DNA of 64,000 nucleotides, from positions 1 through 64,000 of the forward strand of contig JAFDWQ010000008.1 of NCBI GenBank assembly GCA_018268395.1, written 5' to 3'. This document shows, piece by piece, positions 436 through 48,480 of the stretch. The translations under genes were made by a program, and so were the position numbers. The notes under the pieces were generated by a model that saw nothing but the letters and a program-made list of their open reading frames with translations, was not told the origin of the DNA and did no database searches. This stretch comes from Armatimonadota bacterium. GTDB taxonomy: Bacteria > Armatimonadota > Fimbriimonadia > Fimbriimonadales > Fimbriimonadaceae. Every line of letters starts with the position of its first letter. The stretch's first letter is position 1.

Positions 436-789
436 GATGGGCGGGTGTGCCCCTTAGAGGCGGGTGCCCCGACCAGCGGTGACCTCGCGGTGGGTGGCCC
501 GGCCGAAAGGGGATGGCTCGCCTGCCCCGTCGCCTCTGGTCGGGGTGCCGTTTGCGACCCGGTTCCGAAGGGACTTGCCTTCGTCGCGCGGCCGGCGCTG
601 ACGTGTCTCACGGCCATGGACGTGGTTCTACCTGGCTTTCCGCAGCGGCCGTCATTTTCGGACGTATTCCTTGCGGAACCAGGACAAAGCCGCACGAACC
701 CTCGGCCTTGTCCTGACCACCCTAGCGAGTGGCCACACTTGGTCATACCAGCCGCCGGGAGTCCGGGGAGTCAGATCGGAACTGCTTTG
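436..789. repeat. Gene-free spacer with an inverted repeat and a family-B-like element
   Basis: No convincing gene is seen here. Two 10-bp arms, CCCCGACCAG at 467-476 and CTGGTCGGGG at 536-545, form an exact inverted repeat. The stretch 493-590 (GGGTGGCCCGG... to ...CCCGGTTCCGAAGGGA) resembles the repeat that flanks the phosphoesterase/NTPase gene at 27567-27660 and 30903-30994, mainly at both ends, with a poorer match in the middle. The open frames across it look like antisense or repeat-derived reading. Confidence 0.5.
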
Positions 790-27247: not shown

Positions 27248-27467
27248 TGTGCTGTTCCTTCGTTTCCGTGGGGCCTTCTTTGCCGGGGGGACGGGTATCG
27301 GACCTGGCCCTGGCATCTTTTCCGGCTCCGCGCCTTGCGCCTGTTAGGGAGTCTTGGTAGGGCGCGAAGGATTCCTTAGGGCACAGGAGGGTGCAGTTTG
27401 CAAAAGTCTTCGATTTTGATGCTGCGGCGGACTTGGTGGCGTCAGGCCCGCTCGGCCCTTTGGGGTT

Positions 27468-27509
27468 ACGTCGTCCCGACCGACCGCAGGGAGCGGAGGG
27501 ACCTCTCCC
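27468..27509 (+). repeat. Palindromic repeat family A, single half-element
   Basis: This is one ACGTCGTCCCGA...GGGACCTCTCCC half-element of the family forming the array at 32198-33420. It lies in the 420-bp gap between the fibronectin-like gene and the phosphoesterase/NTPase gene. That gap shows no gene. Confidence 0.85.
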
Positions 27510-27566: not shown

Positions 27567-27660
27567 CCGGCTCCTTCGGAACCGGGGTGCAACCGGCACG
27601 ACCATCCGGTTCACCCCGGCCACCCAGGAGGAGGTCAGCCTTGATCAGGCCACTTGCCGG
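27567..27660 (-). repeat. Family-B repeat, left flank of the phosphoesterase/NTPase gene
   Basis: Read on the minus strand, this 94-bp copy aligns along almost its full length with 30903-30994 on the plus strand. Both contain CCTCCTCCTGGGTGGCCGGG and later CACCCCGGTTCCGAAGGA. It ends 9 bp from the stop codon of the gene it flanks, so the two copies form inverted flanks. Confidence 0.85.
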
Positions 27661-27668
27661 ATATTAAT

Positions 27669-30600
27669 TCACTTTTCGCCAGCAAGCCTCGGCTTGAACG
27701 GAGACCCAAAAAGGGCAGGCATGTTCGGGTCTACCTTAACCGCAGCACACAGGGATTGACGGCGATTGTGGGTTGAATCAAATGTCCTCAGATTCGTTAC
27801 CACAACGTTTGTCAGAACATTTCTAGCAATAGGGTTACCATCCAGGTTCTCATAGAATGCGGCTACTGCGGTGTCCTCAATTCTCTTCAGGTCAAGGAGC
27901 AGGCTTGTTCTGATCATCCTTGATGAGACGCTTGTGGCATCGGCCCTCACGCCATAAAGTGTATCAGCGAGGTGGGGAGATGCCAGTGCAAGTGTGGTGC
28001 GTCTGACTATGCCGAAACTACAAACACCCAACAACGTCGATGCGAGTTGGTTCTCCTTAGTCGGGTCAATGTTCACCTTCAGATGCTTTCGCGCCAAGCT
28101 GATAAGTTCACCCTGTCCCTGCTCGACCAGTCCGATGAAGGCTGTCAGGGCCCTCAGCGCTAGGCCGTAGCACTCCTCGGCCAGTCCCTCCCGAATTTCG
28201 AGCTTGATTTTTGTCGAGTAATTGCGTAGAGCCTGTCCGATGATGTTGATCGTATTGAACGCCTCTGACATGCTCTTAATGGTCAGCAAAAGTTGCTCAT
28301 CCAGATCGTCGTCGCTTTCAGCCGAGGTCGAGTGGTGGTGGTCATCCACATCGATCCCTTCATAGATCTCTAGTTCGGATTTCTGCTTGTGCTTGTCAAC
28401 CTGGGCAAAGTCGAACGACGTACTCATGTCGCATTCATCCAGCTTCCCCAGGACTGTATGAGCCTTGGTGATGACCTGCTTCATCAGCCAGGGGCTCCTG
28501 GTCAAGTAGATCGTGAACAGGATCACGTCAGCGCTTTCTTGCTCGTGCAGGGTCTCTACCATTGCCATCAGAATGGCCCGGCCATCCTCTTGCGTGTCCT
28601 CATCACCAAGCATGTCCTTAAGTCGCGTGGCCATGAAGTAATACCGCTGGTATCGCTCACGGAACTTGTAGCCTGAGTCGTCCTGGACGATCATCCTTGC
28701 ACGGTTTAAGACCGCCAGCAACTGTGATCTCTCCAACGGAATCTTCTCTTTGTGGAACAGGGCGATGACTTGGTTGATCTGTTCGTCCGTGACGTAGAAA
28801 GTCCGCTCTAAGTACATCGTGAACGAGAGTTCGGTCAGGAAGTCCATGAGAGCATTGAGCTGTATTTCCTGTGCATCTTTCCCGGCATTCGCCACCCCGT
28901 CAGACAGGTCATTCCGAACCATGCGATCATAGAAGAACCCGAACGCACCGTATTCGGCCGTTGAAGTCTGCTGTGAGATCAAATCACGAACAATGGCCTT
29001 CACGTCACCAGGGAGTGGGGTGACTGTCATCTGACCCAAGATCCCGTCCAAGTTACGTTCAAGCTGGACCAACGCCTCGTTGACTTGAACATCATCTGTG
29101 TAAGCTACCTGGACGTTATGTACCTTTCTGGCGATCTCTTTCTGTTGGGCTCCGTCCAGTGGGAGCATTCTGTAGATTCTGAAGTTGAGGATCGTGTGGT
29201 CCTTGAACGCGGCCCATACGTGACGAAGAACAGACAACTCGTCACCGAAAAGGATGGTCATACCCGATAGAGACTCGATGCTGTTTAAAAGAGTCTTTAG
29301 CTGCTCAGACTTGAGCTTGACTTCCTGGAACTCATCAATCAAGATTGCCCTCTTCTCAATCGGCACTTGGAGGAACTTGGTATCGGCCCCTTCTCCGTAT
29401 TGCTCGACTGCGCGTTTGGCCAGGGCAGCATGTACGCTATCAATTTCTGGTGATCCGAGATCGTGCGGACACAGCACCAGTGGCACCTTGCCCATCGACC
29501 TCAAGTCCGCAAACAGCTTGCGGAGCAAAGTCGTCTTTCCGGACTTACTCTCCCCGACAACCAGCATTCGAGGTTCCGTCGCGAGCTTCGAAATTGCATC
29601 TGAGGCCGGGATAATTCGATCAATTTTCGTCTCATCCTTCGTGACTGTGGTTACTGGCCTCGATTCAACCTGCGGTCCCTTAGCGTTAGCGGCCGTCCTA
29701 TTCCTCACGGGAGTCACGGGGCCAGTTGGCCCCTTACCTTGCTGCTGAGCCCGATGGGTCTCAAAAGTAACATCCCGGAGCTTCGGGTAAACGAAGACAT
29801 CGGCCAAACGGATGGTACCATTAACTCCACCTGTCGACATTCCAGGGTCATCCAGGAAGTCAAGAAACTTGTCTGTGACCATGAAGCCGTCTGTGACACC
29901 GACATCACGGCGCATGTTGAACCAGTCTTGAGCTGCTCCTGGCACGTAACGATTGTCGTGCCAGAGGAAAGTGCTGGTTCGGCGCTGACCAGTATCAAAG
30001 TCAAGTGCAATTGTTGAGAATCCTTGGCTGCCTGGACCCTTGGGCGGGATCAGGGCGTCGGCTTCGAAAAAGATCGTCTCACCGGAAGCCTTGGAGTGCC
30101 TGACGTACTCTTGGCCATCGTGCTCGTGTCCGGAGAGAACCAAATCTGAAAACCCCTGCAAATGCTTCTGAATGCCCCTGCCGTTCTCAATCTTCAACCA
30201 ATTCCAAGGATGGTGCATTAGGCAGATCCGAAACGATCCATCAGTTACGCTCAAATCCTCGGGCCAGTAGCTGCTCAAGAGACCTTGATCATGTTCATCC
30301 AAGCAGGCAAAGGATGTATTCAGACACACGATCTCAAGATTTGCGTTGTCAATTTTGAATGTCCGCACCCAGCTTAGTTTCTCAGTGACAGAGTCACTTG
30401 ATCGTCCAGTTCGCGCCTTCTCGAACTCAAAGAACTTTGCCTGCGCTTCTAAGGCAATCGCAACCTCGACCGAGCCGGGCCCAAGTAAGTTCCTGGGATG
30501 TCGGAGGTTGGTCAGAGCGGTCGTGAGCCCAAATAGATCCTTCGCGTCCTCGGGCCGCGTTATGTCGTGGTTCCCTGGAACGTAAATCTCACCCAAATAC

Positions 30601-30842
30601 TCGATATTGGGTTGAAACGTCTTGAGAGAATCCTGAAGATCTGCGAAGAACATTTCCACCCAGGAGTAACCTTCGGGATCCCCCTTGTCCGTAAGATCTC
30701 CGGTGACCAAACAAAGGACGGCTCCGACTCCGGGAATATCACCCAAAGCAGCCTTGGCAATCTCTGGTGCACGTTGGATTGCGGCGTTCGTACCAGCGCC
30801 ATCAAAGTGAAGGTCGCTGAGGTGAAGTAGCAAGATTCTCAA
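27669..30842 (-). CDS. Metallophosphoesterase/STAND-type P-loop NTPase fusion, candidate defence protein
   Basis: This 1057-residue protein has all calcineurin-like phosphoesterase motifs in residues 1-300: DLH (10-12), GDLTD (48-52), GNHD (90-93), HH (210-211) and GHEHD (238-242). A linker leads to a P-loop NTPase with Walker A GESKSGKT (430-437) and Walker B ILIDEF (500-505), then about 500 residues of helical C-terminus with an acidic His-rich patch (DVDDHHHSTSAESDDD). This effector-NTPase-sensor order is that of STAND immune ATPases. I infer that the phosphoesterase attacks nucleic acid or nucleotides on triggering. The start is TTG 30842 with GGGGGA about 8 nt upstream. The base composition is visibly lower in GC than its neighbours, and inverted family-B repeats flank it. 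Confidence 0.82.
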   Translation of the reverse strand: MRILLLHLSDLHFDGAGTNAAIQRAPEIAKAALGDIPGVGAVLCLVTGDLTDKGDPEGYSWVEMFFADLQDSLKTFQPNIEYLGEIYVPGNHDITRPEDAKDLFGLTTALTNLRHPRNLLGPGSVEVAIALEAQAKFFEFEKARTGRSSDSVTEKLSWVRTFKIDNANLEIVCLNTSFACLDEHDQGLLSSYWPEDLSVTDGSFRICLMHHPWNWLKIENGRGIQKHLQGFSDLVLSGHEHDGQEYVRHSKASGETIFFEADALIPPKGPGSQGFSTIALDFDTGQRRTSTFLWHDNRYVPGAAQDWFNMRRDVGVTDGFMVTDKFLDFLDDPGMSTGGVNGTIRLADVFVYPKLRDVTFETHRAQQQGKGPTGPVTPVRNRTAANAKGPQVESRPVTTVTKDETKIDRIIPASDAISKLATEPRMLVVGESKSGKTTLLRKLFADLRSMGKVPLVLCPHDLGSPEIDSVHAALAKRAVEQYGEGADTKFLQVPIEKRAILIDEFQEVKLKSEQLKTLLNSIESLSGMTILFGDELSVLRHVWAAFKDHTILNFRIYRMLPLDGAQQKEIARKVHNVQVAYTDDVQVNEALVQLERNLDGILGQMTVTPLPGDVKAIVRDLISQQTSTAEYGAFGFFYDRMVRNDLSDGVANAGKDAQEIQLNALMDFLTELSFTMYLERTFYVTDEQINQVIALFHKEKIPLERSQLLAVLNRARMIVQDDSGYKFRERYQRYYFMATRLKDMLGDEDTQEDGRAILMAMVETLHEQESADVILFTIYLTRSPWLMKQVITKAHTVLGKLDECDMSTSFDFAQVDKHKQKSELEIYEGIDVDDHHHSTSAESDDDLDEQLLLTIKSMSEAFNTINIIGQALRNYSTKIKLEIREGLAEECYGLALRALTAFIGLVEQGQGELISLARKHLKVNIDPTKENQLASTLLGVCSFGIVRRTTLALASPHLADTLYGVRADATSVSSRMIRTSLLLDLKRIEDTAVAAFYENLDGNPIARNVLTNVVVTNLRTFDSTHNRRQSLCAAVKVDPNMPALFGSPFKPRLAGEK

Positions 30843-30902
30843 TGTAGCGTCCCCCAAGAGATGAACGTGGTTTTGCAGCCCGTGTACTCCAGCCACAAGC
30901 TT

Positions 30903-30994
30903 GCGGCGGGTGGCCCGACCATGGGTAACCTCCTCCTGGGTGGCCGGGGTGATCCGGACGACCGTGCCGGTTCACCCCGGTTCCGAAGGAACGT
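30903..30994 (+). repeat. Family-B repeat, right flank of the phosphoesterase/NTPase gene
   Basis: This is the plus-strand copy of the element at 27567-27660, lying 61 bp upstream of the gene start. The gap 30843-31370 contains this copy, a family-A half-element at 31130-31159 and another partial copy at 31225-31285, and no recognisable gene. Confidence 0.85.
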
Positions 30995-31129
30995 GTGCTC
31001 TCCACTCCCGAGACGGTGGATGAAGATTCGTCGCCTCACGTCCTCATTCTACGGCACAAACGTGTTTGCGAAGCGTGTTTCCGTGGCACGAAGACAAGTC
31101 TTCGCGTCACGCGGTGCACGTCTGCATCC

Positions 31130-31159
31130 GGAGGTCCCTCGACGTCGCTCGGGATGACG
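31130..31159 (+). repeat. Palindromic repeat family A, single half-element
   Basis: GGAGGTCCCTCGAC...CGGGATGACG is one half of the palindromic pair that makes up the array at 32198-33420, here standing alone. Confidence 0.85.
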
Positions 31160-31224
31160 AATCTGAACGTTCCAGCACCGCTCGGGACGGTGGACTCCAA
31201 GCGATCTGATTCGGGCCTTCCCTG

Positions 31225-31342
31225 TGTCCTGGCAACCGGACCATCCGGAAGGAGGTCACCCCTTGGTCGGGCCACCCGACCCGGCCTGCAACGGGTCCGG
31301 AAACGGACGGTTTCATCGTGAGCGACGTTGCCAGACCGGGCC
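31225..31342 (-). repeat. Partial family-B copy joined to a two-arm hairpin repeat
   Basis: The segment 31225-31285 on the minus strand resembles the start of family B (GGGTGGCCCGACCAAGGGGT...). It runs into a hairpin whose arms CCCGGCCTGCAACG (31271-31284) and CGTTGCCAGACCGGG also occur in the repeats of the RHS locus at 45070-45142 and 47300-47371. It ends 28 bp before the DUF6584 gene. Confidence 0.65.
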
Positions 31343-31886: not shown

Positions 31887-31971
31887 GGCGGACCCTGCCG
31901 AGGGCGTTTTCGAGCCCCGAAACCTGGTCTCAGGTTCAAACGCGCCCCGCGGGAAGGTTTTTCTTTGAAGC

Positions 31972-32160
31972 AATGGAGCTTCGCTTCAAAGCGAGAGAGC
32001 TTCGCTTCAAAGCAATGGAGCTTCGCTTCAAAGCAATGGAGCTTCGCTTCAAAGCAATGGAGCTTCGCTTCATAGCAATGGAGCGTCGCTTCAAAGCAAT
32101 GGAGCTTCGCTTCAAAGCGGGAGAGCTTCGCTTCAAAGCGGGAGAGCTTCGCTTCAAAGC
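31972..32160 (+). repeat. 21-bp tandem repeat, nine copies
   Basis: Nine consecutive 21-bp units consist of a variable three bases plus GGAGCTTCGCTTCAAAGC or a one-base variant. The period is a multiple of three, so one plus-strand frame reads a heptad MELRFKA over and over, and the minus strand reads CFEAKLH or RFEAKLS. No upstream start or gene supports translation. Each unit contains GCTTCGCTTCAAAGC, whose ends are complementary (GCTT/AAGC). Confidence 0.92.
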
Positions 32161-32197
32161 AAGGACTCTGCGCGGAAGAGCGCATGTCTTTCGGCCA

Positions 32198-33420
32198 CGT
32201 CATCCCGACCGACCGAAGGGAGCGGAGGGACCTCCCTTTGTGCGCTGCCAACGGAAGACGGAGATCCCTCGGCTTCGCTCGGGGTGACATGATCGGTGTC
32301 CGGGCTCCCTCACTGAAGAACGCGTCGTCCTGACCGTCCGCAGTGCTTGGAGGGACCCCCCGTTCCCAATCGTTTGCAGGGATCGGAGGTCCCTCGACTT
32401 CGCTCGGGATGACGTGATCTGAAGGTACTGGGCAACGTACAGGACGCCGTGATCAGGTTCTGCCGCAGCCTCAGAGGCACGTCATCCCGACCGACCGCAG
32501 GGAGCGGAGGGACCTCCCTTTTGCTGCACCGACTTTCGGAGGTCCCTCGACTTCGCTCGGGATGACATGATCAGTGTTTGGGCTCCCTCACTTAAGGTCG
32601 CGTCATCCCGACCGACCGAAGGGAGCGGAGGGACCTCCCTTTGTGCGCTGCCAACGGGATCCGGAGGTCCCTCGACTTCGCTCGGGATGACGTGATCAGA
32701 GTTTGAGCCCCCTCACTTAGGGTCGCGTCATCCCGACCGACTTCAGGGAGCGGAGGGGCCTCCGGAAGGTAGCCTGATCGATCGGTAGAAAGCCGCGGTC
32801 TTACGTTTACATCCTTGCGAGCTCATCGGGGACGCTGTACACGGGCGTGACCACCGATATCGTCGGCCGCGTCTGGCAGCACAAGACCGGCGAGTTCGAA
32901 GGCTTCAGCAAGAAGTATCGCTGCAACAAGCTCGTGTGGTCCGAGGAGTTCACCGACGTGACCGAAGCCATCGCAAGAGAAAAGCAGATCAAGAATTGGA
33001 GGCGCGAAAAGAAGGTCAGGCTCGTGGAGTCGTCGAACCCTGACTGGAGAGATTTAGCGGCGGATTGGTACGGCGGTTCTTTCGACTCAGCGTCCGGCTA
33101 GCTACCCGGAGGTCCCTCGACTTCGCTCGGGATGACGCGATCTGGTTTTGTCGCTTCACCCTTGTAGATACGTCATCCCGACCGACCGCAGGGAGCGGAG
33201 GGACCTCTCATTCCCTTTAGTTTGCAGAACCCCGGAGGTCCCTCGACTTCGCTCGGGATGACGAATCTGAGAGTCCTCGGCTTCGCTCGGGATGACGTGA
33301 CCAGGGTTCGCCCCACACCCCATGCGCCACGTCATCCCGACCGACCGAAGGGAACGGAGGGACCCCCTTTACCTCCTCCCGCCTTTCGGAGGTCCCTCGA
33401 CTTCGCTCGGGATGACGTGC
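32198..33420. repeat. Ordered array of palindromic family-A half-elements
   Basis: Half-element A (CGTCATCCCGA...GGGACCTCC type) starts near 32198, 32322 (degenerate), 32480, 32601, 32726, 33171 and 33331. Half-element B (GGAGGTCCCTCGACTTCGC...) starts near 32258, 32385, 32538, 32663, 33109, 33233 and 33388, with a partial near 33274. Apart from that partial the order strictly alternates A, B, A, B. B-to-A gaps are usually about 33 nt and share TGATCAG...CTCCCTCACTT. A-to-B gaps are 17-24 nt, except one of about 345 nt that contains the GIY-YIG frame. No other gene is present. Confidence 0.9.
32778..33101 (+). CDS. GIY-YIG nuclease-domain protein without a canonical start
   Basis: The open frame after a TGA at 32775-32777 encodes about 107 residues with the whole GIY-YIG domain: YVYILASSSGTLYTGVT, then VGRVWQHK, KLVWSEEF, AIAREKQIKNWRREKKVRLVE and the terminal NPDWRDLAADW. 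The GIY (here YVY) and YIG (LYTG) motifs lie before the first ATG/GTG/TTG, a GTG at 32847 that would remove the active-site strand. A functional product would need an unusual codon such as ATC 32781, which has GGAAGG 11 nt upstream. Otherwise the gene is 5'-truncated. It sits inside the palindrome array between an A and a B half-element. Confidence 0.7.
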   Translation, partial: SIGRKPRSYVYILASSSGTLYTGVTTDIVGRVWQHKTGEFEGFSKKYRCNKLVWSEEFTDVTEAIAREKQIKNWRREKKVRLVESSNPDWRDLAADWYGGSFDSASG

Positions 33421-44948: not shown

Positions 44949-45142
44949 TGGCTGCCTCCAGACTTCCGGACACCACCTCACACCGCGCGCCGCCGGACCT
45001 CGTCTGGAGGCTTCGTCCGCACCGACTCACAGCGCGCGGTTTCACGGGCCAACGTGACGCGGCGTCCTTGCCCCGGTCTGCAACGACCTCCGGTGCGGCG
45101 GGATGAAGCGTGGACGCCGTTGCCAGACCGGGCCACCCGTCC
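44949..45142 (+). repeat. 193-bp two-hairpin repeat, copy 1
   Basis: Hairpin 1 has arms GCCTCCAGAC and GTCTGGAGGC around a conserved loop. Hairpin 2 has arms CCCGGTCTGCAACG and CGTTGCCAGACCGGG. The element ends GGGCCACCCGTCC and is followed immediately by RHS coding sequence. Copies 2 (47179-47371) and 3 (47991-48066, first hairpin only) are highly similar. Confidence 0.88.
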
Positions 45143-45397
45143 AGTGTTAACTCGTCAGGTACGACGACCTACACGTACGACGACAACGGCAACCTGGTGG
45201 CGGTCAAGGAGGCGCTCGTTCCGACCGTCACGACCATGTCGTATGATAAGGAGAACAGGATGACGCTGTACCGCTCCGGCAGCACAAGGACGACGATGGC
45301 CTACGACGGCGACGGCCTCAAGCGCTCGGTGCAGACTTCGGGGACCCTGACGACGCTCGTCTGGGACGGGCTCACGATCCTGCAGGAACGGACATAG
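45110..45397 (+). pseudogene. RHS repeat fragment, frameshifted
   Basis: The open frame contains YD-type repeats (TTTYTYDDNGNLVAVKEA, MSYDKENRMTLYRSGSTR and MAYDGDGLKRSVQTSG) and ends LVWDGLTILQERT at a TAG. The next frame resumes exactly where the RHS core should continue, so a single-base indel near 45396 separates the two. The first eleven residues come from the upstream repeat, and no long RHS barrel precedes it, so this is a truncated RHS remnant. Confidence 0.75.
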
Positions 45398-45401
45398 TCT
45401 G

Positions 45402-46313
45402 ATGGCGGTCAAGACGTACCAGCACGCGCACGGGAGGCTCGTCTCGGAGAAGACGACGGGCGGATCCCGCAAGGACTACCTGACCGATGCTCTGGGTTCG
45501 GTGACGTACGTGACCGACACCTCGGGCAACACGCTGGAAACGATCCGGAACGCCGCCTACGGAAAGAGGGTGAGCGGTGCCGCGCCGACCGTGACCAGGA
45601 CATGGGTGGGAACCTGGGGCTACGCCCAGACGGGCCTCCTTTGGGCCGATGTCTCCCTGCCGTACCGGCACTATAGCTCGCAGACCACCAGGTGGACGAC
45701 GAGGGATGTCTTATGGCCAAGGCAATTCGCATTCAGCTATTGTCTGGGGCGGCCAACAGGTCTCACTGATCGCTTCGGACTCAATGTCGGGCCACCTGGT
45801 CCTGTGTGTCCTCCCCCGAGCCCACCGTCAAACTGTGTCGAGTGTAGCAAGCCATGGAACGCGTACATTTACGCACTATGCAATTGCCCGCCCTGGGGGC
45901 TGTTCCATGACTTCGTGTGCGCAAAGTTGGCGCGAGACTATTACTTTACTTGTGGCAAACAAGGCAAGTACGGCATGCCAGGCATGTCTCCTTTCAGGGC
46001 GCATCCACGTAACGGACGACCCGGCGAAGTATACCCTGATCCACCGCCCCGACCATCGCTTTCAGGTGGAAGGATCAATCCAAGCATCGGTAAGGGCCAC
46101 GGGGGGCCACCCCCGAAACCAATTGAGGTTTCTCGTTGTGTAACACCTTCGCGCAATTTGATTGAGTGTATGGAATGCTGCAACATGAAGTTTATTGGTG
46201 AATCTCTTGAACTTTGCCACCATTTTTGCGAGTCTTATTGGGAGTACGTCGACGAAGTCATTAGAGAGGCTGAGATGGAACTCATTAAGGAAGCCGTTAG
46301 GGAGCTTGAATAG
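45402..46313 (+). CDS. RHS-repeat core with Cys-rich C-terminal tail (possible toxin domain)
   Basis: This 303-residue protein's residues 1-128 are the conserved RHS core (VKTYQHAHGRLVSEK, DYLTDALGSVTYVTD, YSSQTTRWTTRDVLWP, GRPTGLTDRFGLN). After the usual boundary the remaining 175 residues are a variable tail with 13 cysteines in pairs (VECSK, CNCPP, MECCN). No known toxin fold is recognised. In RHS proteins this tail is the toxin. It shares its last base with the start of the next gene (TAGTG), the layout of a toxin-immunity pair. The tail DNA is lower in GC than its surroundings. It is separated from the upstream RHS part by a frameshift. Confidence 0.75.
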   Translation: MAVKTYQHAHGRLVSEKTTGGSRKDYLTDALGSVTYVTDTSGNTLETIRNAAYGKRVSGAAPTVTRTWVGTWGYAQTGLLWADVSLPYRHYSSQTTRWTTRDVLWPRQFAFSYCLGRPTGLTDRFGLNVGPPGPVCPPPSPPSNCVECSKPWNAYIYALCNCPPWGLFHDFVCAKLARDYYFTCGKQGKYGMPGMSPFRAHPRNGRPGEVYPDPPPRPSLSGGRINPSIGKGHGGPPPKPIEVSRCVTPSRNLIECMECCNMKFIGESLELCHHFCESYWEYVDEVIREAEMELIKEAVRELE

Positions 46314-47095
46314 TGCTCTCTCAGAATCACACTATCAAGCTGCTCTTCATGCTGAGTCTTTGTATGCTCCCGCTCGTTGCATGCGAAAGTCGCACGGCTA
46401 CACTCGCAAAAACGTTGGATCGCGCAGAATTGCCCGGCTCGGCCAATGAAGCGGTGACGACGCTGCGCTCATTATCTGACGCACAAAAGAGTGATATTCC
46501 CTTCTTAATTAAGTACGCTAAGGATTCAAGTAAGCAGTTTCAAGGGCGTATCGTTGCGATAAGGACGGTTGTAGTACTGTCGAAAGGGGATGCAATTTCC
46601 CTCTTACAAGAACTCAGCACTGATCCGGATCAAAGGATGAGAGTGGCCAGTATCTTGCTTCTGGAGGGATTAAGCCGAGAGGTTACAGATAGAGTCAGCG
46701 AATCCCTACTGGGGGACTCCGTCCGGGGAGTCCGCGTTGTTGCAGCAAGCCACCTTGAGGTTCCGGTTAGGGGCGAAACGAGGAAGAAAGTCCTCCTTTC
46801 GCTGGCTGTTGAGTCTGAACGAGGAGTCGTGCTGTTCCTGTGGACATCTCTCTTGGATCCAGCCCGTGATAACATGGGTTTCACCAGTGACGACGATTTG
46901 ACCCTTGCGGAAGGGATCAGCAATTTCCACGAGTTCAGGCCACAAGAGTTCAGCAGTAATCTTACTAACGCATTTAGGCAAACGCAAACTAAGACGCCAT
47001 TGAAGGCCCCGAAGCTGTCAGCGGTCTTAAGGAGAAGCTCCGGTGCAGAAATGGGTTTGAAGGGAAACCTTGAGATCCTCCGGTTCTTACGGTGA
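46313..47095 (+). CDS. HEAT-like lipoprotein, candidate immunity protein
   Basis: This 260-residue protein has a lipoprotein signal (MLSLCMLPLVAC, Cys24) followed by helical HEAT-like repeats (SDIPFLIKYAKDSSKQFQGR, DQRMRVASILLLEGLSREV, DSVRGVRVVAASHLE). The GTG at 46313 overlaps the stop of the RHS tail by one base, so translation is coupled. HEAT-like proteins downstream of RHS or polymorphic toxins often act as immunity proteins. Membrane anchoring would place this one outside the cytoplasm, which should match where its toxin acts. Low GC, as for the tail. Confidence 0.65.
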   Translation: MLSQNHTIKLLFMLSLCMLPLVACESRTATLAKTLDRAELPGSANEAVTTLRSLSDAQKSDIPFLIKYAKDSSKQFQGRIVAIRTVVVLSKGDAISLLQELSTDPDQRMRVASILLLEGLSREVTDRVSESLLGDSVRGVRVVAASHLEVPVRGETRKKVLLSLAVESERGVVLFLWTSLLDPARDNMGFTSDDDLTLAEGISNFHEFRPQEFSSNLTNAFRQTQTKTPLKAPKLSAVLRRSSGAEMGLKGNLEILRFLR

Positions 47096-47178
47096 AGCTC
47101 TTGCTGGGACAGGTTGGCCGAGTGGCGAGTTCTCGGCATGAGGATGGGCCAGGCATGGCAACACGCTGGATTGACTTT

Positions 47179-47371
47179 TGGCTGCCTCCAGACTCCGGAC
47201 ACCACCTCACACCGCGCGCCGCCGGACCTAGTCTGGAGGCTTCGTCCGCACCGGCGCACAACGCGCGGTTTCACGGGCAGGTCTGATGCGGCGTCCTTGA
47301 CCCGGTCTGCAACGGTCTCCGGTCCGGCGGGATGAAGCGTGGACGCCGTTGCCAGACCGGGCCACCCGTCC
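47179..47371 (+). repeat. 193-bp two-hairpin repeat, copy 2
   Basis: This second full copy of the element at 44949-45142 lies between the HEAT-like lipoprotein and the small membrane protein at 47423. Arms GCCTCCAGACT and AGTCTGGAGGC here form an 11-bp stem. An extra GGACCGGGCCACCCGG follows at the 3' side. The interval 47096-47422 holds nothing else. Confidence 0.88.
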
Positions 47372-47422
47372 GGACCGGGCCACCCGGCCGAAAGTGTCGG
47401 TTTGGTGGAAACGTGTGATGAA

Positions 47423-47629
47423 GTGAGTATCGGAGAACTACAGCAATGGTGTAGAGCTGTACAGCTCCCGTTTGTAATAGTATTCGCAGGTATCTGCGTT
47501 GCATTAGCCTTGAGTAGAAAGAAGTCGGGTTTGTACCGTAAGCGTCTGTCCATGCTCGCTCTTGGTATGTTTGGGCTCCTCTTGTGCGCATCAGTAATAC
47601 CAGTTGTACTTAGCCAGAGGCAGCCCTAG
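47423..47629 (+). CDS. Small membrane protein next to an RHS-locus repeat
   Basis: This 68-residue protein has two hydrophobic segments (LPFVIVFAGICVALAL and MLALGMFGLLLCASVIPVVL) joined by a basic loop (SRKKSGLYRKRL). The GTG at 47423 is preferred. The longer frame back to 47339 is translated repeat sequence and gives the same MDAVARPGHPS start as the RHS fragment. Its position after repeat copy 2 suggests an orphan immunity protein or cassette remnant. No homology is recognised. Confidence 0.5.
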   Translation: MSIGELQQWCRAVQLPFVIVFAGICVALALSRKKSGLYRKRLSMLALGMFGLLLCASVIPVVLSQRQP

Positions 47630-47990
47630 TGTGGCTTTGTCTTGTGAAATAGTAAGGTGATCGGGTTGGCTGCCTTCCCGGCGGCATTCTGCCGCGGAAA
47701 CAACTTCGTGTTGAGTATGGCAACAATTGCGGCTCGGACCGATCCCAGGCCCACATGCAAGAGAGACGGGCTGTCCTCTTGACACGCCGTGGGACACTGC
47801 CCTGGCTTAGTTAGTGAACAGATACTGGGCTAAACATCCCTTACCGGCAAAGGTTTGAACTCAGTCTGAGAGCGCCCCACTCCAGATTCCTGCAATGCGC
47901 TCGACGGCTTCGGGCAGTACGACCCTCCGGACGTTTCTGTCCACGGAAGGATTCCAGCCATTGCTGACAAACTCCTGCCACGCACCGGTC

Positions 47991-48066
47991 TTGGCTGCCT
48001 CCAGACTCCGGACACCACCTCACACCGCGCGCCGCCGGGCCTAGTCTGGAGGCTTCGTCCGCACCG
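47991..48066 (+). repeat. Two-hairpin repeat, copy 3 (first hairpin only)
   Basis: This segment matches the first 76 bp of copies 1 and 2, including arms GCCTCCAGACT and AGTCTGGAGGC and the ending GCTTCGTCCGCACCG. Similarity stops after that, so the copy is truncated. Confidence 0.88.
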
Positions 48067-48280
48067 AATCGAAGTCCAAGCACGTCGTCGTGACGAGATA
48101 TGTCGGCCTCTGGGCCATCCCGGTTCTGGTCGTGCCGATTCCTGGCCAACCGGGAGGAGGGAGTCATCTGACGGGTGGCTCGGTCTGGCAACGCGCCATG
48201 ACGAGCCTTCCGAGCGCGCTTGTCCCGTTGCAGACCGGGTCAAGGACGTCACCACGGGTCGCGTCCCAGGTCGTCCGGCT

Positions 48281-48352
48281 TGTGGCCTGACCAAGGGTGA
48301 CCTCTTCCCGGGAGGCATGGGTGAAACCGGATGTCCGTGCCCGTTTGCACCC
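48281..48352 (+). repeat. Family-B repeat, partial distant copy
   Basis: GTGGCCTGACCAAGGGTGAC and the following sequence match the inner part of the repeats flanking the phosphoesterase/NTPase gene, continuing through GTGAAACCGGAT to TTTGCACCCC. It lies about 17 kb from them. Confidence 0.7.
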
Positions 48353-48480
48353 CTATCCGTGACACGGACCCTCAAAGCCTGGGTCGTCAGGGGAGCCCTC
48401 ACACTGCCATCGCATACCATTCGACTCCGAAAATGCAGGTTTCTTGCCCCGTTCCAGATTCCCTTGCACGCCACCCTCTG

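What the first reader, a model, noticed from the sequence alone, without database searches (positions are those of the whole stretch)
27567..27660. Inverted 90-bp flanks resembling ends of a mobile cassette (repeat family B)
Aligning 27567-27660 (minus) with 30903-30994 (plus) gives near-continuous identity, including CCTCCTCCTGGGTGGCCGGG and CACCCCGGTTCCGAAGGA. Partial copies occur near 493-590, 31225-31285 (minus) and 48281-48352. No transposase is present between the two flanks. The family therefore either moves as a non-autonomous unit or marks sites where accessory genes enter.
Basis: seen in the sequence. Interest (0 to 1): 0.6.

Follow-up and report, generated by a model that had tools for sequence, protein, structure and literature searches.

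The report
Hairpin REPIN repeats flanking defence gene
The two inverted 90-bp flanks are arms of two separate miniature hairpin elements (REPINs) of a kind that a small transposase is thought to copy; in this Fimbriimonadaceae bacterium they crowd into about 20 gene-variable spots, one of which holds a probably acquired anti-phage-type gene.

Summary
The repeat is real: 27572-27659 (-) and 30904-30990 (+) are 86% identical over 88 nt. It is one family of GTGG-tagged palindromes (REPs) whose complete unit is a ~270-300 bp inverted doublet: 30-nt terminal module, covarying hairpin, spacer, hairpin, module. The window holds two complete units (457-757; 30904-31281, with a CGTC repeat nested inside), one lone arm (27570-27659) and one partial arm (48277-48354). 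Units with the same ends carry a Y1/HUH transposase (RAYT) on another contig, and one such end lies beside RAYT genes in congeners. So the 'inverted flanks' are neighbouring arms of two different REPIN-type elements, not the ends of one cassette: they are not each other's closest copies, there is no target-site duplication, and the cassette is single-copy. Copies are not random: 21 clusters instead of ~42 expected, none in 400 kb of off-cluster sequence, and genes inside clusters are atypical in GC and mostly missing from congeners. The enclosed gene (1075 aa, metallophosphatase + STAND-like NTPase, PADLOC PDC-S60, GC 52%) is probably an acquired defence gene. New variant of a known kind.

The parts
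27570..27659 (-). lone arm: GTGG-tagged hairpin (about 27572-27627) plus terminal module A (about 27630-27659); A points to the gene, tail outward
30904..31281 (+). complete inverted doublet (378 bp); left arm 30904-30994, right arm 31212-31281 on minus
31121..31161 (.). CGTC-type palindromic repeat nested in the spacer of the 30904-31281 unit
   Evidence: (family D4)
27669..30896 (-). single gene between the flanks: 1075 aa as the longest ORF (a start near 30845 is more likely), N-terminal calcineurin-like metallophosphatase, central STAND-like AAA NTPase; PADLOC PDC-S60
457..757 (+). complete inverted doublet (about 300 bp) with two different hairpins (heterodimer)
48277..48354 (+). single truncated arm
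27452..27509 (.). CGTC-type palindromic repeat beside the left arm, near where its missing partner arm would lie
   Evidence: family D2

Best explanation
The flanks are arms of REPIN-type miniature elements: inverted doublets of GTGG-tagged REP palindromes with a shared 30-nt terminal module. They are presumably copied, as single strands, by Y1/HUH transposases (RAYT/TnpA-REP) encoded elsewhere in the genome, one of them in a unit with matching ends. The acquired defence-type gene lies between one complete unit (30904-31281) and one half-decayed unit (27570-27659) in an intergenic repeat cluster. Because intact doublets carry their GTGG ends outside, any gene between two of them sees inverted flanks. 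Shown: doublet structure, hairpin covariation, GTGG tag, matching ends around RAYT genes, clustering, atypical genes inside. Inferred: RAYT-driven copying, and that the clusters are tolerant sites where repeats and foreign genes both accumulate.
For: Complete ~271-299-bp units with terminal inverted modules CGGCGGGTGGC...GCCACCCGCCG at several loci. Hairpin covariation: 38 cells changed on both sides, shuffles mean 11.9 (0 of 500 reach it), slid versions 4-8. Different stem sequences under the same GTGG foot, which is the published RAYT-associated tag GT[AG]G (PMC6006769). RAYT gene L048 3839-4465 flanked by inverted hairpins of the same type; RAYT L041 5353-5886 with module A at both ends (scores 36 and 40, background maximum 28 in 300 stretches) and A on one side of RAYT genes in two congeners; HUH and Tyr motifs kept in four of these. 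Short-spaced doublets without a gene are convergent 9 times, GTGG ends outside, the HH type published as predominant. Flanks are not closest relatives, no TSD. Clustering: 21 clusters vs 41.8 expected, minimum 34 in 5000 simulations. GC below 58% in 4 of 16 interior genes vs 3 of 286 controls (Fisher p = 1.7e-4).
Against: No transposition seen, and no RAYT activity can be tested here. Copy number (about 50) is low for REPs. Published REPs are mostly spread over the genome, these are clustered. The RAYT-flanking hairpin in L048 has a shorter loop than family B copies, so which RAYT serves family B is not settled. The left arm's partner is missing. Control stretches were chosen away from known copies, and the whole-genome scan scored 40 of 75 candidate spots.
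Confidence: 0.85

Rival explanations
1. The two flanks are the ends of one non-autonomous transposon or composite element that moves the defence gene as cargo, mobilised in trans by a RAYT.
For: The gene is tightly flanked (8 and 10 bp from the longest ORF), has foreign GC (52% vs 63%) and is absent from congeners. Several other stretches with genes are also bounded by divergent copies.
Against: Flanks are closer to other copies than to each other and show no TSD; single copy; the right flank is itself a complete two-armed unit; other sandwiched genes have tandem copies. REPtrons are reported not to transpose as a unit (PMC6006769).
Confidence: 0.08
2. The units are MITEs of a classical DDE transposon with 30-bp terminal inverted repeats, and the RAYT association is incidental.
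For: Module A is a 30-nt terminal inverted repeat on ~285-bp units.
Against: No consistent TSD around complete units (by eye); internal hairpins are conserved by covariation; the matching ends found so far flank Y1 transposases, not DDE ones.
Confidence: 0.06
3. Integron-like cassette array with attC-type recombination sites.
For: Structured repeats alternate with single accessory genes.
Against: attC sites lie in one orientation along an array; here orientations are mixed (10 convergent, 14 tandem, 8 divergent). The units are symmetric doublets and are found around Y1 transposases.
Confidence: 0.01

Closest known systems
REPINs / BIMEs and RAYT (TnpA-REP) REPtrons, as in Pseudomonas fluorescens SBW25 and E. 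coli (PMC3116915, PMC6006769)
   Same: Intergenic palindromes with a GT[AG]G foot, inverted doublets with tags outside, inverted hairpins around Y1/HUH transposase genes, several stem types in one genome
   Different: About 50 copies instead of hundreds, confined to about 20 clusters; longer unit (~285 bp) with an extra 30-nt terminal module shared by different hairpins; phylum Armatimonadota
Thermomicrobium roseum GTAG-23 REPs (PMC3733652)
   Same: REP family clustered in blocks at few loci instead of spread over the genome
   Different: No sequence relation tested; gene content of those blocks not reported in the passages read
TIR-flanked RAYT genes / TIRYT (PMC3733652, PMC6006769)
   Same: A Y1 transposase inside terminal inverted repeats, with extra non-coding copies of the ends
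   Different: Here the ends combine a terminal module with a GTGG-tagged hairpin; the published TIRs are described as unrelated to GTAG repeats
PADLOC PDC-S60 (gene between the flanks)
   Same: Matches two models over both halves (5e-40 and 2e-26)
   Different: Candidate family only; no paper found in the library; nearest plasmid relatives are about 20% identical, some annotated with a TIR domain instead of a phosphatase

Membership tests
REP/REPIN (RAYT-associated) | imperfect palindrome of about 20-65 nt | tested here: met
   hairpin, 92% of cells paired, strong covariation
REP/REPIN (RAYT-associated) | GT[AG]G tetranucleotide at the 5' foot of the hairpin | tested here: met
   GTGG directly before the stem in nearly all copies and in all stem types
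REP/REPIN (RAYT-associated) | organised as inverted doublets, tags outside (HH) | tested here: met
   9 convergent short pairs without a gene; complete units
REP/REPIN (RAYT-associated) | same palindrome flanks a Y1/HUH tyrosine transposase gene in inverted orientation | tested here: met
   L048 (hairpin of this type, shorter loop), L041 (module A both sides); one-sided A in L091 and L081 of congeners
REP/REPIN (RAYT-associated) | many intergenic copies | tested here: met
   at least 46 places, nearly all between genes
REP/REPIN (RAYT-associated) | spread over the whole genome (usual, not universal) | tested here: not met
   21 clusters vs 41.8 expected; 0 in 400 kb off-cluster sample; a published exception exists, so this is not treated as a defining feature
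REP/REPIN (RAYT-associated) | hairpin is bound and cut by the cognate RAYT | not testable with these tools
   needs biochemistry
cassette transposon with 90-bp TIRs | two ends of one element closely alike | tested here: not met
   87% to each other, 90% to copies on other contigs
cassette transposon with 90-bp TIRs | target-site duplication | tested here: not met
   no exact match longer than 4 nt at the outer borders
cassette transposon with 90-bp TIRs | same cassette elsewhere or exact empty site | tested here: inconclusive
   gene absent in 3 congeners, but synteny around the site is lost, so no empty site can be read
integron attC array | sites all in one orientation relative to cassettes | tested here: not met
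   mixed orientations
PDC-S60 defence candidate | profile match over both the phosphatase and the NTPase part | tested here: met
   Pfam Metallophos over cut-off, AAA and nSTAND_NTPase4 below cut-off

The most novel reading that the evidence does not exclude
REPIN clusters in this genus are working gene-capture sites: RAYT-cut doublets on both sides let a gene between them be excised or inserted as a REPIN-gene-REPIN unit, so defence and other accessory genes are exchanged through them.
Probability: 0.1. Interest if true: 0.75.

Novelty: new variant of a known kind. Interest (0 to 1): 0.42.

Why it matters
REPINs are usually treated as scattered, gene-neutral passengers kept by RAYTs. Here several REP families share about 20 loci that also hold compositionally foreign genes, including a defence-type gene. 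That gives a concrete system for asking whether REP clusters only tolerate gene gain or help it. The two-module unit, with one terminal module combined with different covarying hairpins and with RAYT genes beside the same module in three species, also helps to define what a RAYT may recognise.

Tried and rejected
Rfam scan of the region: nothing relevant. Exact-pattern scan of named genomes for the core: no hit. Empty-site reading at the window: only the PNT operon is kept in congeners and the 14-33 kb stretch is not syntenic. Synteny breaks were considered as a property of the clusters and dropped, because breaks also occur outside them. Defence-gene enrichment in clusters: 10 further genes gave only a PDC-M72A-type ankyrin protein and a protease-like match, too few to claim. 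The tblastx part was noise and is not used. A paper search for PDC-S60 found nothing. The L090 RAYT reading frame was chosen wrongly and is not used.

Full report
OBSERVATION. The minus-strand stretch 27572-27659 and the plus-strand stretch 30904-30990 align at 86% over 88 nt, score 114 against at most 25 in 200 shuffles. Other copies in the window lie at 457-757, 31212-31281 (-) and 48277-48354. The genome (3.7 Mb, 15 contigs) holds at least 46 places with a match; only 40 of 75 candidate spots were scored, so this is a lower bound. Few weaker copies occur in two congeners and none in the other 38 genomes of the genus, family and order that were searched. By its ribosomal protein S2 the organism is a member of the Fimbriimonadaceae, phylum Armatimonadota.

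ANATOMY. A copy has two parts: a terminal module A (CGGCGGGTGGCcTGACCAAGGGTGACCTC) and a hairpin headed by GGGTGG. The hairpin occurs with unrelated stems (CCGGGGTG/CACCCCGG, CCGGGCTG/CAGCCCGG, CCAGGACAAGG/CCTTGTCCTGG and others), many followed by TTCCGAAGGAAC. On 20 hairpins, 92% of cells pair, and 38 cells show changes on both sides against 11.9 in shuffles (0 of 500 reach it) and 4-8 when the partner is slid. Complete units are 271-299 bp: A, hairpin, spacer, hairpin, A in inverted orientation. At 30904-31281 the unit is 378 bp because a CGTC-type palindrome is nested in it. The left flank 27570-27659 is one arm whose partner cannot be recognised.

WHAT IT BELONGS TO. The genome has four Y1_Tnp (IS200-like) genes. 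The one in L048 lies between inverted hairpins of this type; the one in L041 lies between inverted A modules, which makes a 705-bp unit with the ends of the small ones. RAYT genes in two congeners have an A module on one side (L081, L091). HUH and Y motifs are kept in L041, L048, L081 and L091. Published REPs carry GT[AG]G at the hairpin foot, form inverted doublets and flank Y1 transposases (PMC6006769, PMC3116915, PMC3733652). All three tests are met here, so the family is filed as REP/REPIN.

WHY THE FLANKS ARE INVERTED. Short pairs without a gene between them include 9 convergent ones, the published HH arrangement. A gene between two such doublets sees divergent arms, as the 1075-aa gene does; others lie between tandem copies. 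The two flanks are nearer to copies on other contigs (90%) than to each other (87%), and no target-site duplication is visible. A moving cassette is therefore not needed and not supported.

ASSOCIATION WITH GENE GAIN. The 46 BLAST places form 21 clusters against 41.8 expected, minimum 34 in 5000 simulations. In 400 kb chosen away from known copies there was no further copy, and two other palindrome families (D10, D11) that were not used to choose the regions were absent there too, with 26 and 30 hits in the cluster regions. Genes with repeats on both sides have GC below 58% in 4 of 16 cases, control genes in 3 of 286. In two clusters compared with congeners, 1 of 5 inside genes and about 13 of 15 outside genes had a DNA match (counted by hand from the match coordinates, Fisher p = 0.014). 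This is an association. Whether the repeats help gene entry or only share tolerant sites is open, and I think the second more likely.

THE GENE. 27669-30896 (-) encodes a calcineurin-like metallophosphatase joined to a STAND-like NTPase, matches PADLOC PDC-S60 over both halves, has GC 52%, and has relatives in only 2 other genomes of 85 in the family. Plasmid relatives are distant, and some carry a TIR domain instead. A role in phage defence is likely from family knowledge but untested.

VERDICT. Observation right; cassette idea not supported; site-marking idea supported as an association. New variant of a known kind.

Noticed in passing
window 32181-33419, GIY-YIG ORF 32847-33101; L084 3720-5000 (G001): A small single-domain GIY-YIG ORF sits inside a dense array of CGTC-type palindromes (CGTCATCCCGACCGA...GGAGGGACC) here and, at a non-syntenic place, in a congener. 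CGTC repeats are described as lacking a dedicated transposase (PMC3733652), so this nuclease is a candidate partner.
   Followed up: partly
L204, L207, L211, L215 (other Fimbriimonadaceae): Small GIY-YIG ORFs lie next to tRNA-like sequences (direct reading) with duplicated tRNA 3' parts, in L207 and L211 as tandem pairs; this looks like a homing element that targets tRNA genes. The tRNA 3' end in L211 shares CATCCCGACC with the CGTC repeat.
   Followed up: partly
L051 850-2250; window 44949-48066: Another palindrome family (GCCTCCAGACT...AGTCTGGAGGC) flanks a second RAYT gene in inverted orientation and has copies in the window.
   Followed up: partly
L090 4000-4720 (G002), L081 4540-5200 (G001): Palindrome family D11 (CCCGGTCTG..CAGACCGGG with GTGG foot) flanks RAYT genes in two congeners.
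   Followed up: partly
window 31927-32194: Tandem 21-bp repeat GAGCTTCGCTTCAAAGCAATG, about 10 copies, between the DUF6584 gene and the CGTC array.
   Followed up: no
L043, L045, L046, L051, L052 near repeat arms: A lineage-specific family of ~210-aa secreted-looking proteins (e.g. L043 5983-6624) recurs beside the repeats in five clusters; the one member tested has no Pfam match.
   Followed up: no
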